In this document: positions 8,100-25,829 of the stretch, in pieces
How positions within the stretch are numbered: position 1 is the stretch's first letter
Layout: each line of letters begins with the position of its first letter
Made by a program: the position numbers and the translations under genes
Assembly: GCA_946481135.1 (NCBI GenBank)
Contig: CAMLMQ010000001.1
Coordinates: 1 to 53,924, forward strand
DNA from: an uncultured Microbacteriaceae bacterium
GTDB lineage: Bacteria; Actinomycetota; Actinomycetes; Actinomycetales; Microbacteriaceae
Length of the DNA stretch: 53,924 nt
Direction of reading: 5' to 3'
The notes under the pieces: generated by a model
Told to the model about the DNA's origin: nothing
What the model saw: only the letters and a program-made list of their open reading frames with translations
Databases searched by the model: none

Positions 8100-8945
8100 T
8101 CACTGATCCGAGCGCTCCATCCCGACTCGGGCGAGCACCGTCGACTCCAGCGCCGACGCGATCGAATAGAGCACGATGGACGTGAGTGTGACGACGGCAG
8201 CGAGCGTCCAGACCTCGGACATCTTGGCCTGCGCGACCGCCGCGATGATCGCGCGGCCGACGCCGTCCCCTGTCGCCAGCCACTCGACGACGAGCGCCCC
8301 CGTGATCGACCCGGGCACCGCGATCCGGATCGCGGCGAACAGTGCCGGGAACGCGCTCGGCAGCGACACTTTGCGCAGCACCGTCATGGAAGTCCCGCCA
8401 TAGACCTGAACGAGTTCGACCATGTACGGCGACGCCGATCTCAGACCGAACACGATGGTCACGAGCGCGGGGAACACGACGACCAATGCACCCATGACCG
8501 CGACCGTGGCGAGGTCGCGGCCGAAGATGAGGATGATGATCGGCGCGAGCGCGATGAGCGGGATCGATTGCAGCACGAGCATGAGTGGCATGAGCGCCTG
8601 CTCGACCGGCCGCACCAGCAGGAACACGGCGGCCAGCAGGAGCGCCGCGCCGAGCCCGAAGGAGAATCCGATCGCGGCATCCACGAGGGTCTCCCCGAGT
8701 CGGGCGAGCACGAAGGCGCGGTTGTCGCTCGCGGCCGGGACGGTGAAGAGGTACGCCCACACGTCCTGGGGACCCTTGCCGACGAAGCCGGGCACGCGCA
8801 GGAGCGCGAGCGAACCCCACCAGATGAGCAGGATCACGGCGATCGTGCCGAGACCGGTGAGCGCGGCCCGCCCGATGCCCCGGACCGTGCGCGTGAGCGT
8901 GCCGGCCCCCCGCACCGCCGCCATGCTGCGGGTCGGGGCGCTCAC
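8100..8945 (-). CDS. ABC transporter permease (SsuC/ThiX-type), second of pair
   Basis: A 281-residue inner-membrane permease with six predicted helices and the BPD_transp_1 coupling motif (EWLATGDGVGRAIIAA preceded by IRIAVPGSITGALVV). I chose the GTG at 8945 because it overlaps the TGA of the preceding permease (GTGA), although the frame is open further upstream. It belongs with the other permease, the ATPase and the NMT1/THI5-like lipoprotein. This class of importer takes up pyrimidine precursors, sulfonates, nitrate or other small organic nitrogen or sulfur compounds. The neighbouring catabolic genes suggest that a heterocyclic nitrogen compound is the cargo. Confidence 0.85.
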   Translation of the reverse strand: MSAPTRSMAAVRGAGTLTRTVRGIGRAALTGLGTIAVILLIWWGSLALLRVPGFVGKGPQDVWAYLFTVPAASDNRAFVLARLGETLVDAAIGFSFGLGAALLLAAVFLLVRPVEQALMPLMLVLQSIPLIALAPIIILIFGRDLATVAVMGALVVVFPALVTIVFGLRSASPYMVELVQVYGGTSMTVLRKVSLPSAFPALFAAIRIAVPGSITGALVVEWLATGDGVGRAIIAAVAQAKMSEVWTLAAVVTLTSIVLYSIASALESTVLARVGMERSDQ

Positions 8946-9763
8946 GAGCGCACCCCCCGCGTCCAGGGCGTCACGAACCGCGAGACGATGGCGATTGCCG
9001 CGAAGCCGGCTCCGGAGACCGCTCCCGTCACGAGCGCGAGGGCCCATGCGCGCGGCGCCTGGAGGCTCTGCTGCGCGTTCACGAGCGCAGGCCCGATCCC
9101 CACGTCGACACCTCCGAGGTACTCCCCGATGATCGCGCCGAGGAAGGCGAGGGGCGCGGCGATCTTGAGTGCGTTGAGGAAGGCCGGCAGTGCCGCGATG
9201 GCGCGCACCTTCGTGAACTGCCGCAGGCGACCACCGCCGTAGACGGCGACGATCTCCAGCGACGCGCGGTCGGCCGCTCTCAAACCGAGCAGACCGCCCA
9301 GCAAGGTGGTGAACACCACGAGCATCGCAGCCAGGAAGACGGCCGTTCCGGACGGCTCCCCGGGCCCAGGAGCTCCGCTGATGACGCGGACGATCGGTCC
9401 GATGGCGACGATCGGGATGCAGTAGCTCACGATCGCGACCTGGGTGATCGAGCGCTCGAGGCGCGGCACCAGAACCACGACGAGCGACAGCACGAGCGCA
9501 ATCCCCACCCCCCAGCCGAAGCCGATGACCGCCTCCCGACCGGTCGCGACCACGTGACGTGAGAAGTAGCCGAAACCGCCGTCCACGAGCGCCCCCACGA
9601 CCTCGGCCGGGTTCGGGATGCTGCCCCCGCTCCCACTCGGCGTCACGCCGACACGGGCGAAGACCGTCTCGGCGGAGACCCACCAGACCGCGATGACGGC
9701 GGCGAGGCCCGAGAGGCCGACGAGCGTCCCCCGGAGCCGCGACCGGTTGCCGCGCGTGTTCAT
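8942..9763 (-). CDS. ABC transporter permease (SsuC/ThiX-type), first of pair
   Basis: A 273-residue permease with an N-terminal membrane helix (about 13-30) and five more helices. The cytoplasmic coupling segment includes EYLGGVDVGIGPALVNAQQS. It differs clearly from the second permease, so the channel is probably a heterodimer rather than the usual homodimer. Its ATG overlaps the stop of the ATPase gene and its stop overlaps the next permease start, giving tight translational coupling in the order ATPase, permease 1, permease 2. Confidence 0.85.
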   Translation of the reverse strand: MNTRGNRSRLRGTLVGLSGLAAVIAVWWVSAETVFARVGVTPSGSGGSIPNPAEVVGALVDGGFGYFSRHVVATGREAVIGFGWGVGIALVLSLVVVLVPRLERSITQVAIVSYCIPIVAIGPIVRVISGAPGPGEPSGTAVFLAAMLVVFTTLLGGLLGLRAADRASLEIVAVYGGGRLRQFTKVRAIAALPAFLNALKIAAPLAFLGAIIGEYLGGVDVGIGPALVNAQQSLQAPRAWALALVTGAVSGAGFAAIAIVSRFVTPWTRGVRS

Positions 9764-10593
9764 GAGTCGTCGAGCGCCGCGCCGTGCGCGCCGAAGAGGA
9801 GCTCCGACGCACGGTCGTGAAGCGCGTGGAACTCAGGGGTGCGCATGATGTCCGGCGTGCGCGGACTCGGGAGGTCGACGTCGATGACTTCGACGATCCG
9901 TCCGGGCCGCGCCGACATCACCGCGACTCGATCCGAGAGGAAGATCGCCTCGCTGATGCCGTGAGTGACCATGAGGGTCGTCGCCGGCTTCTCGGCCCAG
10001 ATCCTCAGCAGCTCGAGGTTGAGCCGCTGCCGCGTCATGTCGTCGAGCGCCCCGAACGGCTCGTCGAGCAGAAGCACCGACGGACGCATCACGAGGGCGC
10101 GTGCGATCGAGGCACGCTGGCGCATCCCGCCCGAGAGCTGCGCGGGGCGCGCCTTCTCGAATCCGGCGAGACCGACCAGTTCGATCAGTTCCCGGATGTA
10201 GTCGCGGTCGGGCGTCGCCCCGGCCACCTCGAACGGCAACCGGATGTTGGCTTCGACGGTGCGCCACGGCAGTAGCGCGGAGTCCTGGAATGCGACGCCG
10301 AGTTTGTGCTGAGACCGGAGGGTGCCGGCGTCCATGCCATCGACCATCGCCGTGCCGGACGTCGCCCTCTCGAGGCCGGCGAGGATGCGCAGGATGGTCG
10401 ACTTGCCGCATCCCGACGGACCGAGCAGTGACAGGAACGTGCCGCGGTCGGTGTGGAGGTCGACACCGTCGAGGGCGACGACGTCTCCCCGCCGAGTGGA
10501 GAAGGTCTTGGTGAGACCGTGGAGCGTGAGACCCGTGGCCGGGGGGCCGCCGTCGCCGACGACCCCCCTGCCGAGGTGAACCGAACTGTTCAT
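9760..10593 (-). CDS. ABC transporter ATP-binding protein (SsuB/TauB/ThiZ-type)
   Basis: A 277-residue ATPase with Walker A LLGPSGCGKST, Q-loop QDSALLPW, signature LSGGMRQRASIARAL, Walker B VLLLDEPFGALDD and the switch histidine in VTHGISEA. These features are typical of NitT/TauT-family importers. I used the ATG at 10593; the arginine- and serine-rich residues encoded before it in frame are read through the binding-protein gene in another frame. The gene lies 25 bp after the binding protein and overlaps the first permease by 4 bp. Confidence 0.92.
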   Translation of the reverse strand: MNSSVHLGRGVVGDGGPPATGLTLHGLTKTFSTRRGDVVALDGVDLHTDRGTFLSLLGPSGCGKSTILRILAGLERATSGTAMVDGMDAGTLRSQHKLGVAFQDSALLPWRTVEANIRLPFEVAGATPDRDYIRELIELVGLAGFEKARPAQLSGGMRQRASIARALVMRPSVLLLDEPFGALDDMTRQRLNLELLRIWAEKPATTLMVTHGISEAIFLSDRVAVMSARPGRIVEVIDVDLPSPRTPDIMRTPEFHALHDRASELLFGAHGAALDDS

Positions 10594-24942: not shown

Positions 24943-24947
24943 CGCCG

Positions 24948-25829
24948 ATGGTCGCCGCGACGTGGCTCGGCCTGCTGGTCGCCGCCTGCTACGGCACGAG
25001 CGACTTCCTCGGCGGGCTGCTGTCCCGCCGCACGCGGCTCATCGACGTCCTGCTCGGAGCCCAGGCGACGATGGCCGTTCTCGCCCTCGGGACCCTCGTC
25101 GTCTCGCCTCCGCCACCCGGCGTCGCGGGGTGGGGTTGGGGTCTGGCGGCCGGAGTCGCGCAAGCGGGAGGAGTCGCGGCCCTGTTCCGCGGACTGGCTG
25201 TGGGGCGGATGGGCGTCGTCGCGCCGCTGTCCGCCCTCGCCGTCGTCGTCCCCTTGAGCGTCGGCCTGGCGAGCGGCGATCCGCTCTCGGGCCCCCTTGG
25301 CGGCGGACTCGCGGCAGCGGTCGTCGGGGCGATCCTCGCCGGCGGTCCCGAGGTACGACGGTCGGAAGGCCCCCCCGGCTCGCGCGCGGCGATCGGGTAC
25401 GCGTTCCTCGCGGCTCTCGGATTCGGGTGCTCCCAGGTGCTGCTGGCGCAGGGGGCGGCCGTGCATGTGCCCTCCACGCTCGCCGGAGCGGCGGGTGCCG
25501 CGCTGGTGCTGTACGGCACGGTGTGGCTCGTGCTCGCGGTTCGCCGGCGCGTGCGGACGGCCCCTGTCGACCCGCCGCGGATGCGCGGTCCGATCCTCAT
25601 CGGAGTCGTCGCCATCGGCGTGCTCAACTTCACCGCGAACACCGTGTTCGGCCTGTCGAGCATCGTGGCGCCGCTCTCCGTTCTCGCTGTGCTCGCCGCG
25701 CTCTATCCGCTCGTCACCGCGGGACTCGCCCGGGTCGTCCTCCGCGAGCGCCTCCGTCCCGTCCAGTTCGTGGGGATCGCGCTCGTCGTCGCGGGGCTCG
25801 TCGTGATGGTCGCCGTCAGCCCACGCTGA
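24948..25829 (+). CDS. EamA/DMT-family permease
   Basis: A 293-residue membrane protein with ten predicted helices in two repeated EamA halves. The typical second-half ending is APLSVLAVLAALYPLVTAGLARVVLRERLRPVQFVGIALVVAGLVVM. It may export a toxic intermediate or import a substrate. It starts 5 bp after the flavin reductase stop and is the last gene of the plus-strand operon. No terminator hairpin is obvious before the next gene. Confidence 0.83.
   Translation: MVAATWLGLLVAACYGTSDFLGGLLSRRTRLIDVLLGAQATMAVLALGTLVVSPPPPGVAGWGWGLAAGVAQAGGVAALFRGLAVGRMGVVAPLSALAVVVPLSVGLASGDPLSGPLGGGLAAAVVGAILAGGPEVRRSEGPPGSRAAIGYAFLAALGFGCSQVLLAQGAAVHVPSTLAGAAGAALVLYGTVWLVLAVRRRVRTAPVDPPRMRGPILIGVVAIGVLNFTANTVFGLSSIVAPLSVLAVLAALYPLVTAGLARVVLRERLRPVQFVGIALVVAGLVVMVAVSPR

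What the first reader, a model, noticed from the sequence alone, without database searches (positions are those of the whole stretch)
8100..25829. Uncharacterised Rut-like plus hydantoinase-like catabolic system with its own importer
Seen: 19 genes in two divergent, largely overlapping operons. Four functional counterparts of the uracil Rut pathway are present: luciferase-type oxygenase (18096), isochorismatase-type amidase with Asp42-Lys139-Cys172 (16457), RidA (19297) and flavin reductase (24427). They are joined by a complete binuclear hydantoinase-type enzyme, a deaminase-type amidohydrolase, an amidohydrolase-2 protein, an MMSDH-like CoA-acylating dehydrogenase, a 4Fe-4S old-yellow enzyme, an SDR, an Ohr, a thioesterase and an NMT1/THI5-type importer. 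Known: NMT1/THI5 proteins often carry pyrimidine-like ligands, and RutA makes a peroxy intermediate. Inferred: import of an N-heterocycle, deamination, oxygenative or hydrolytic ring opening, removal of carbamate/ammonia, and semialdehyde oxidation straight to an acyl-CoA. I know no described pathway with this exact set.
Basis: partly seen in the sequence, partly recalled or inferred. Interest (0 to 1): 0.85.

Follow-up and report, generated by a model that had tools for sequence, protein, structure and literature searches.

The report
Actinobacterial nitrogen-ring degradation gene cluster
Eighteen neighbouring genes form an unstudied unit, kept together in several soil bacteria, that seems to import a nitrogen-containing ring compound and break it down for food; which compound it is remains unknown.

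Summary
The named domains are present in two divergent operons (8100-24942), with conserved catalytic motifs apart from one unusual residue in the 'deaminase'. Seventeen of the 18 genes occur together in 8 of 8 full loci from other Actinomycetota, in the same order (transporter block inverted in one). The EamA gene at 24948 is in none.

'Rut-like' is only an analogy. The luciferase-type oxygenase (LLM) shows no significant similarity to RutA; the amidase belongs with N-carbamoylsarcosine and maleamate amidases. The hydantoinase and amidase form a module also seen without the LLM clade. The dehydrogenase is methylmalonate-semialdehyde-dehydrogenase-like. Importer relatives lie directly beside adenosine deaminase or purine nucleoside phosphorylase genes in 7 of 15 inspected neighbourhoods (but only 1 of the 5 closest), and no thiamine riboswitch was found, so a nucleobase-type ligand is mildly favoured.

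Best reading: uptake of a nucleobase-like N-heterocycle, deamination, ring opening, ureide/amide and enamine hydrolysis, and conversion of a malonate-type semialdehyde to acyl-CoA. Substrate unproven. I found no description in the open library searched. New variant of a known kind.

The parts
8100..8945 (-). ABC permease 1 (start uncertain)
   Evidence: PF00528 76 bits; in 8 of 8 full loci
8942..9763 (-). ABC permease 2
   Evidence: PF00528; 8 of 8
9760..10593 (-). ABC ATPase, NMT1-type importer (start uncertain)
   Evidence: PF00005; 8 of 8, 71-82% identity
10619..11680 (-). NMT1/THI5-type substrate-binding protein
   Evidence: PF09084 140 bits; nearest solved structure ThiY 3ix1, 59.8 bits; importer family partly beside ADA/PNP genes
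11843..12448 (-). XRE-cupin regulator
   Evidence: HTH_3 plus Cupin_2; 8 of 8
12459..13811 (-). cog0402-type amidohydrolase, putative deaminase with Asp at the usual Glu
   Evidence: PF01979; TRZ/ATZ and MTA/SAH-deaminase-like; Glu to Asp
13808..14218 (-). SnoaL-like NTF2-fold protein
   Evidence: PF12680; 8 of 8
14215..15606 (-). hydantoinase/allantoinase/dihydropyrimidinase-type cyclic amidohydrolase
   Evidence: NCBIfam allantoinase 248 and D-hydantoinase 239 bits, both under cut-off; HxH, K, H, H, D motifs conserved; pair module with the amidase
15603..16460 (-). amidohydrolase-2 protein, decarboxylase/lactonase-like fold
   Evidence: PF04909; fold neighbours 3irs, 4i6k, LigW, ACMSD; beside the LLM also in L021
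16457..17158 (-). isochorismatase-type amidase of the N-carbamoylsarcosine/maleamate amidase group
   Evidence: PF00857; 26st 118 bits, 3ot4 89, RutB 37; triad conserved
17220..18023 (-). acyl-CoA thioesterase-like protein (accessory)
   Evidence: PF13622; only L001, L002 of 8 full loci, and L009
18096..19292 (+). luciferase-type (LLM) flavin-dependent oxygenase
   Evidence: PF00296 155 bits; 77-88% in 8 of 8 full loci; own clade in the tree
19297..19695 (+). RidA-type enamine/imine deaminase
   Evidence: PF01042; 81-87% in 8 of 8; FPTRAT arginine conserved in the rows aligned
19692..21140 (+). MMSDH-like CoA-acylating semialdehyde dehydrogenase
   Evidence: TIGR01722 431.6 bits, cut-off 448.5; the 10 PDB sequences at E<=1e-70 are all named MMSDH
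21140..23212 (+). 4Fe-4S old-yellow-enzyme family reductase
   Evidence: PF00724 190 bits; mycofactocin OYE2-like, 506 against cut-off 793; CxxC...C motif conserved
23209..23964 (+). SDR dehydrogenase
   Evidence: PF13561; 8 of 8
24000..24434 (+). Ohr peroxiredoxin, both cysteines present
   Evidence: TIGR03561 149.9 bits, above cut-off 88.85; 8 of 8; cysteines
24427..24942 (+). flavin reductase, presumed LLM partner
   Evidence: PF01613 105 bits; 8 of 8

Best explanation
A conserved catabolic unit, patchily spread and so perhaps moved horizontally. An NMT1-type ABC importer related to nucleoside-salvage-linked importers brings in an amino-substituted N-heterocycle (nucleobase-like: a purine or 5-substituted pyrimidine). 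The cog0402 amidohydrolase deaminates it. The LLM oxygenase, fed FMNH2 by the flavin reductase, oxidises and opens the ring; Ohr may reduce a peracid or hydroperoxide formed on the way. The hydantoinase opens the cyclic amide or imide. The isochorismatase-type amidase removes the carbamoyl or terminal amide. AH2 decarboxylates or hydrolyses, RidA hydrolyses the resulting enamine, and a malonate-type semialdehyde is turned into an acyl-CoA by the MMSDH-like enzyme, with OYE and SDR adjusting redox. An XRE-cupin protein regulates. Shown: gene content, conserved order, conserved motifs, family placement, genomic association of part of the importer family. Inferred: the substrate, the order of steps, the roles of Ohr, OYE, SDR, SnoaL and AH2.
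For: Unit: 17 of 17 non-thioesterase genes in 8 of 8 full loci, same order. Importer kept even where its block is inverted (L001). Importer family: SBP homologue in 31 of 150 family-level genomes, two of them cluster carriers, while the LLM (E<=1e-60) is in 2 of 398. In 15 fetched neighbourhoods adenosine deaminase lies within the stretch in 7, directly adjacent in 6 in two orientations; a DeoD-type purine nucleoside phosphorylase above cut-off is directly downstream in an eighth. LLM: three relatives at 37-50% sit with AH2 (L021) or with flavin reductase and ALDH (L022, L023), all three with PF06684; LLMs of Tgn-like operons match at 28%. Trigonelline ring opening by TgnA/TgnB: passage of PMC8269262; TgnB named among LLM-domain proteins: figure legend of PMC11354265. 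The MMSDH-like enzyme keeps the arginines aligned with MMSDHs (their role is recalled). Amidase group. AH2 decarboxylase-like fold. Both Ohr cysteines.
Against: No protein passes a cut-off that names a substrate; in the rows listed (best 25 per protein) for the 19 proteins, only Ohr passes any NCBIfam cut-off, and that is a subfamily model. The putative deaminase carries Asp instead of the usual Glu. LemA/HtpX genes also recur near the importer (5 of 15), showing that inherited synteny can give such counts. Seven of 8 carrier genomes have uricase (G001 does not), so ordinary purine degradation exists in most. A malonate-type semialdehyde does not follow simply from an unmodified purine. The hydantoinase-amidase pair occurs elsewhere beside carboxylate-metabolism genes, which also fits imides. 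Two plasmid LLMs that match better than the Tgn-like ones (Peribacillus 31%, Sulfitobacter 30%) lie among other genes. GC content does not set the unit apart (0.68-0.72) and no flanking repeat was found, so horizontal movement rests on patchiness alone.
Confidence: 0.45

Rival explanations
1. Thiamine-pyrimidine (HMP-like) or other 5-hydroxymethylated ring catabolism: GMC oxidase and second ALDH oxidise CH2OH to COOH, AH2 decarboxylates, then the ring is opened.
For: ThiY is the nearest solved binding protein. Glaciihabitans and all six Actinoplanes-type loci have about 3 kb between SDR and Ohr; in the three read (L002, L003, L007) it encodes a GMC oxidoreductase and a second ALDH. AH2 has an aromatic-decarboxylase-like fold.
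Against: No TPP riboswitch at Rfam gathering scores near the cluster or the importer relatives scanned. Window and L001 lack the two extra genes. The ThiY score is weak (59.8 bits). Of the neighbours of importer relatives that I scanned with HMMs, none is a thi gene; many neighbours were not scanned.
Confidence: 0.15
2. Cyclic imide or hydantoin catabolism: the hydantoinase-amidase pair is the core (imide to half-amide to diacid, or hydantoin to N-carbamoyl acid to amine), and the LLM half processes the released skeleton.
For: The pair occurs in Variovorax, Hydrogenophaga, Methylobacterium and Halomarina, adjacent in three of the four annotated loci read. The amidase groups with N-carbamoylsarcosine and (recalled) maleamate amidases.
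Against: Does not explain the deaminase-like enzyme, RidA or the importer associations. LLM and RidA are the most conserved genes of the unit (77-88% and 81-87%), which suggests that they are central. The amidase also occurs without an annotated hydantoinase nearby (L031).
Confidence: 0.2
3. Pyridine-type ring cleavage as in trigonelline or pyridine catabolism (C-C cleavage beside the ring nitrogen by the LLM, aldehyde oxidised by ALDH; mechanism recalled).
For: L022 and L023 (40 and 37%) resemble the Tgn-like operon in holding PF06684, ALDH and flavin reductase (compare). L021 pairs a 50% LLM with an AH2 and a PF06684 protein.
Against: Only 28% identity to LLMs of Tgn-like operons, less than to Peribacillus and Sulfitobacter LLMs in other contexts. 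PF06684 and the alpha/beta hydrolase are not among the 18 genes. A deaminase, hydantoinase and MMSDH-type ALDH are not needed there.
Confidence: 0.12

Closest known systems
Rut pyrimidine pathway (E. coli rutABCDEFG)
   Same: Functional types: LLM oxygenase, isochorismatase-fold amidase, RidA-type protein, flavin reductase; plausible malonate-semialdehyde end point
   Different: LLM not detectably similar to RutA by BLASTP; amidase, RidA and reductase not the Rut subfamilies; importer is ABC, not RutG; adds hydantoinase, deaminase-like enzyme, AH2, MMSDH-like ALDH, OYE, SDR, Ohr
Trigonelline (Tgn) and pyridine (Pyr, recalled) ring-cleaving LLM pathways
   Same: Two-component LLM plus flavin reductase plus aldehyde dehydrogenase for N-heteroaromatics; two LLM relatives at 37-40% have this context
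   Different: 28% LLM identity to Tgn-like operons, other hydrolases, other importer
Hydantoin/creatinine catabolism (hydantoinase plus N-carbamoylsarcosine amidohydrolase)
   Same: Hydantoinase-type enzyme beside an amidase whose best PDB match is N-carbamoylsarcosine amidohydrolase
   Different: Oxygenase, RidA, MMSDH-like enzyme and OYE are extra; no substrate-specific cut-off is met
Bacterial uric-acid cluster with ssnA and a hydantoinase gene (recalled)
   Same: cog0402 hydrolase plus hydantoinase-type enzyme plus Fe-S flavoenzyme
   Different: No xanthine-dehydrogenase-type or ammonia-lyase-type gene among the families called; oxygenase-based

Membership tests
Rut pathway | RutA-family LLM | tested here: not met
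   TIGR03612 not among the 20 families listed; BLASTP E 1.3 to E. coli RutA; 0 of 8 carrier genomes have any protein over the RutA cut-off
Rut pathway | RutB ureidoacrylate amidohydrolase | tested here: not met
   39.8 bits against cut-off 377.95; RutB structures 37 bits against 118 for N-carbamoylsarcosine amidohydrolase
Rut pathway | RutC and RutF subfamilies | tested here: not met
   45.8 of 169.1 and 54.6 of 254.75
Tgn-like LLM operon | LLM with flavin reductase and ALDH | tested here: met
   All three in the unit in 8 of 8 full loci
Tgn-like LLM operon | PF06684 protein, alpha/beta hydrolase and GntR regulator beside the LLM | tested here: not met
   Absent from the window genes; annotated in L036 and L040. 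That this layout is the Tgn layout is recalled
MMSDH | Score over TIGR01722 cut-off | tested here: not met
   431.6 against 448.5; the 10 PDB sequences at E<=1e-70 are all named MMSDH
MMSDH | Catalytic Cys, lost ALDH Glu, two substrate arginines | tested here: met
   Aligned; that these positions define MMSDH is recalled
N-carbamoylsarcosine/maleamate amidase group | Asp-Lys-Cys triad, GCVR and DR motifs | tested here: met
   activity not testable here
Hydantoinase/dihydropyrimidinase | Binuclear metal residues including the Lys | tested here: met
   Motifs conserved in the full loci aligned (L006 not aligned); no substrate-specific cut-off met
HMP/thiamine-regulated importer | TPP riboswitch nearby | tested here: not met
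   No RF00059 at gathering scores in the stretches scanned
cog0402 deaminase | Catalytic Glu in the HxHxxE motif (role recalled) | tested here: not met
   Asp in 8 of 8 aligned cluster proteins, window and 7 loci; Glu in SsnA, GuaD and Niallia

The most novel reading that the evidence does not exclude
An undescribed aerobic pathway for nucleobase-like rings in which a luciferase-type oxygenase unrelated to RutA has been recruited convergently to Rut-style chemistry, with a dedicated Ohr that reduces a peracid intermediate, a hydantoinase-amidase module, and an MMSDH-type exit straight to acyl-CoA.
Probability: 0.3. Interest if true: 0.75.

Novelty: new variant of a known kind. Interest (0 to 1): 0.52.

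Why it matters
If the reading is right, it adds an N-heterocycle degradation route in actinobacteria, points to an LLM clade for which I found no tested member (28 rows in one fully supported clade, two pairs of them identical) and gives concrete substrates to test. It would show that Rut-like logic arose from different enzymes, and would give Ohr a possible pathway role.

Tried and rejected
RutA-family and Rut-subfamily membership: rejected. TPP or other riboswitch as a ligand clue: none found (L072-L076 were not scanned whole, but the 1.5-kb flanks of four of these five importers were, as L056, L058, L059 and L061). Mycofactocin dependence, suggested by the OYE and GMC families: the radical-SAM marker is over cut-off in only 1 of 8 genomes. 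Replacement of ordinary purine degradation: uricase in 7 of 8 genomes. Genomic-island signs: no shared 14-mer between 6001-8100 and 24943-28000, GC even. Structure of the binding protein: model too poor (mean pLDDT 49.9), so no fold search was run on it. Sigma-70-like promoter and terminator scan: one promoter-like site against 0.4 expected, no terminator against 3.4 expected. The plasmid search with the LLM gave only relatives below 60% identity. The Acidobacteria family search (0 of 251 at 1e-100) could not detect its own fragment, so it shows nothing. Paper searches on pyridine, flavin-N5 chemistry, thiamine-pyrimidine, trigonelline and MMSDH gave no paper on this cluster in the listings seen. 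That the unit follows clostridial purine breakdown was considered from recall only and not tested.

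
Full report
What is there. ORFs and HMM scans, with codon-position GC for most genes, give two divergent, tightly packed operons: 8100-18023 on the minus strand (two permeases, ATPase, NMT1 binding protein, XRE-cupin regulator, cog0402 amidohydrolase, SnoaL-like protein, hydantoinase-type enzyme, AH2, isochorismatase-type amidase, thioesterase) and 18096-24942 on the plus strand (LLM, RidA, MMSDH-like ALDH, OYE, SDR, Ohr, flavin reductase). 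Catalytic motifs are conserved, with one exception discussed below.

It is one conserved unit. A scan of genome contigs with the LLM found 9 loci at 77-88% identity: Ruicaihuangia, Glaciihabitans, six Actinoplanes-type genomes and a 3.9-kb Acidobacteriaceae fragment. The scan uses exact peptide words, so more distant carriers could be missed. In the eight full loci, 17 of 17 genes other than the thioesterase are present, in the same order, except that Ruicaihuangia has the transporter block inverted. The thioesterase is in 2 of 8 and in the fragment. The EamA gene at 24948 is in 0 of 8, the loci reaching 1.2-4.3 kb past the flavin reductase. Three flank genes were also found in 0 of 8, but the loci reach only about 1 kb past the transporter end in the Actinoplanes-type genomes, so that is a weak test. 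L005 and L006 are nearly identical, so the eight are not eight independent cases. Glaciihabitans and the Actinoplanes-type loci have about 3 kb between SDR and Ohr; in the three I read (L002, L003, L007) it holds a GMC oxidoreductase and a second ALDH (families for L003).

It is rare and patchy. The LLM at E<=1e-60 is in 2 of 398 sampled genomes of the family of G001 and, at 1e-100, in 6 of 300 of the family of G003. At class level (1e-60) 3 of 394 and at phylum level (1e-75) 2 of 396 match, of which only G001 carries the close form. The protein search found 105 proteins at E<=1e-70; 20 are at 70% identity or more and the next is at 55%. The quick tree puts the window LLM with 27 other rows in a clade with 100% SH-aLRT; some long branches in that tree are flagged as unsure. 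Horizontal spread is inferred from this patchiness alone: GC is even and no flanking direct repeat was found.

It is not Rut by descent. Against E. coli MG1655 proteins, the LLM shows no significant match to RutA (E 1.3); the amidase matches RutB at 32.6% over 89 residues but four bacterial relatives at 47-51% and Halomarina at 41%; RidA matches RutC at 26.6% and the reductase RutF at 28.5%. NCBIfam Rut models are far below cut-off, and no protein of the 8 carrier genomes passes the RutA cut-off. The functional analogy remains possible.

What the pieces resemble. L021 (50% LLM) has an AH2 (53%) next to the LLM plus a PF06684 protein, a class-III aminotransferase and an alanine-dehydrogenase-like gene; none of the window's ALDH, flavin reductase or other enzymes was matched on its 16.4-kb contig. 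L022 (40%) and L023 (37%) have PF06684, ALDH and flavin reductase. Plasmid LLMs at 28% lie in an operon GntR, PF06684, alpha/beta hydrolase, flavin reductase, LLM, ALDH (nearly so). I recall this as the trigonelline (Tgn) layout; that TgnA/TgnB opens the trigonelline ring was read as a passage in PMC8269262, and TgnB is named among LLM-domain proteins in a figure legend of PMC11354265. The Tgn paper and a DOI I recalled for the Pyr paper were not held. Against this, two plasmid LLMs that match slightly better, Peribacillus (31%) and Sulfitobacter (30%), lie among acyl-CoA, lactonase and aromatic-cleavage genes, so context at this distance is mixed.

The amidase and hydantoinase are a travelling pair. 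Among the 15 best plasmid records for each, eight records are in both lists, with the two best hits within 14 kb. Where annotation was read they are adjacent in L026 and L027, 8.7 kb apart in L028, and adjacent in three pairs in L030; L029 carries no annotation, and L031 has the amidase with no hydantoinase annotated in the stretch. Neighbours there are MmgE/PrpD, isocitrate-lyase-family and FAD enzymes among others, so the pair alone does not imply pyrimidines. The amidase's best solved relatives are N-carbamoylsarcosine amidohydrolase and proteins I recall as maleamate amidases. The AH2 model (mean pLDDT 72.1) resembles 3irs, a probable pyrone hydrolase and aromatic decarboxylases. The ALDH scores 431.6 bits against the MMSDH cut-off of 448.5, the 10 PDB sequences at E<=1e-70 are all named MMSDH, and two arginines and the lost ALDH glutamate follow MMSDH; their role is recalled. 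One warning: the cog0402 enzyme has Asp in place of the Glu seen in SsnA, GuaD and a Niallia homologue, in all 8 cluster proteins aligned, so deamination is a guess.

The importer gives the best, still modest, substrate clue. Its binding protein has homologues in 31 of 150 family-level genomes, far more than carry the unit. In 15 such 14-kb neighbourhoods (15 fetched of the 36 matches listed, two of which are the cluster's own; L076 is a second Glaciihabitans copy), adenosine deaminase is present in 7: directly downstream in L067, L068, L070 and L071, divergent and adjacent in L073 and L076, 5 kb away in L072. A DeoD-type purine nucleoside phosphorylase, over cut-off, is directly downstream in L064. 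I scanned four of these seven ADA proteins with NCBIfam, and all four pass TIGR01430. Against over-reading: the ADA cases are at 47-52% identity, and of the five closest importers (57-60%, L062-L066) none has ADA and one has the phosphorylase; LemA and HtpX genes also recur (5 of 15, always downstream), as inherited synteny would give. ThiY is the nearest solved relative, but no TPP riboswitch was found in what was scanned. So a nucleobase-like ligand is favoured, not shown. Seven of 8 carriers have uricase, Ruicaihuangia not, so the substrate is probably not ordinary xanthine or urate.

Mechanism. I propose import, deamination, LLM/hydantoinase ring opening, amide or ureide and enamine hydrolysis, and an MMSDH-type exit, with Ohr for a peracid. 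Everything beyond gene content, motifs and conservation is inference. Novelty: four searches of the held library for such gene sets listed one, one, one and four papers, none of them on this subject by title and abstract start; subscription papers are mostly not held. I score it a new variant of a known kind: a real, unstudied catabolic unit with an unknown substrate.

Noticed in passing
window 6836-8042 (-): A CitMHS/ArsB-like anion transporter is readable only in two overlapping frames, N-terminal half in one and C-terminal half in the other: a frameshift or sequence error. Neither frame matches the fetched cluster loci.
   Followed up: partly
window 8062-8097: 17-nt inverted repeat with a 2-nt gap between the transporter operon end and the CitMHS-like gene, possibly a terminator.
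   Followed up: no
window 6771-6845, 26201-26290; L025 6809-6993: tRNA genes lie near both ends of the unit in the window and near one end in Ruicaihuangia; no direct repeats were found in the window.
   Followed up: partly
L021, L022, L023, L035, L036, L040: PF06684 'amino acid synthesis' proteins accompany LLM relatives outside the window clade; their role in ring cleavage deserves study.
   Followed up: partly
L030 2218-16657: Halomarina plasmid with three amidohydrolase-isochorismatase pairs in 15 kb, near an LLM and an NTF2-like gene.
   Followed up: no
L062-L076: A common NMT1-type importer in the family of G001, in part linked to adenosine deaminase or DeoD: possibly an undescribed purine-type ABC importer family.
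   Followed up: partly
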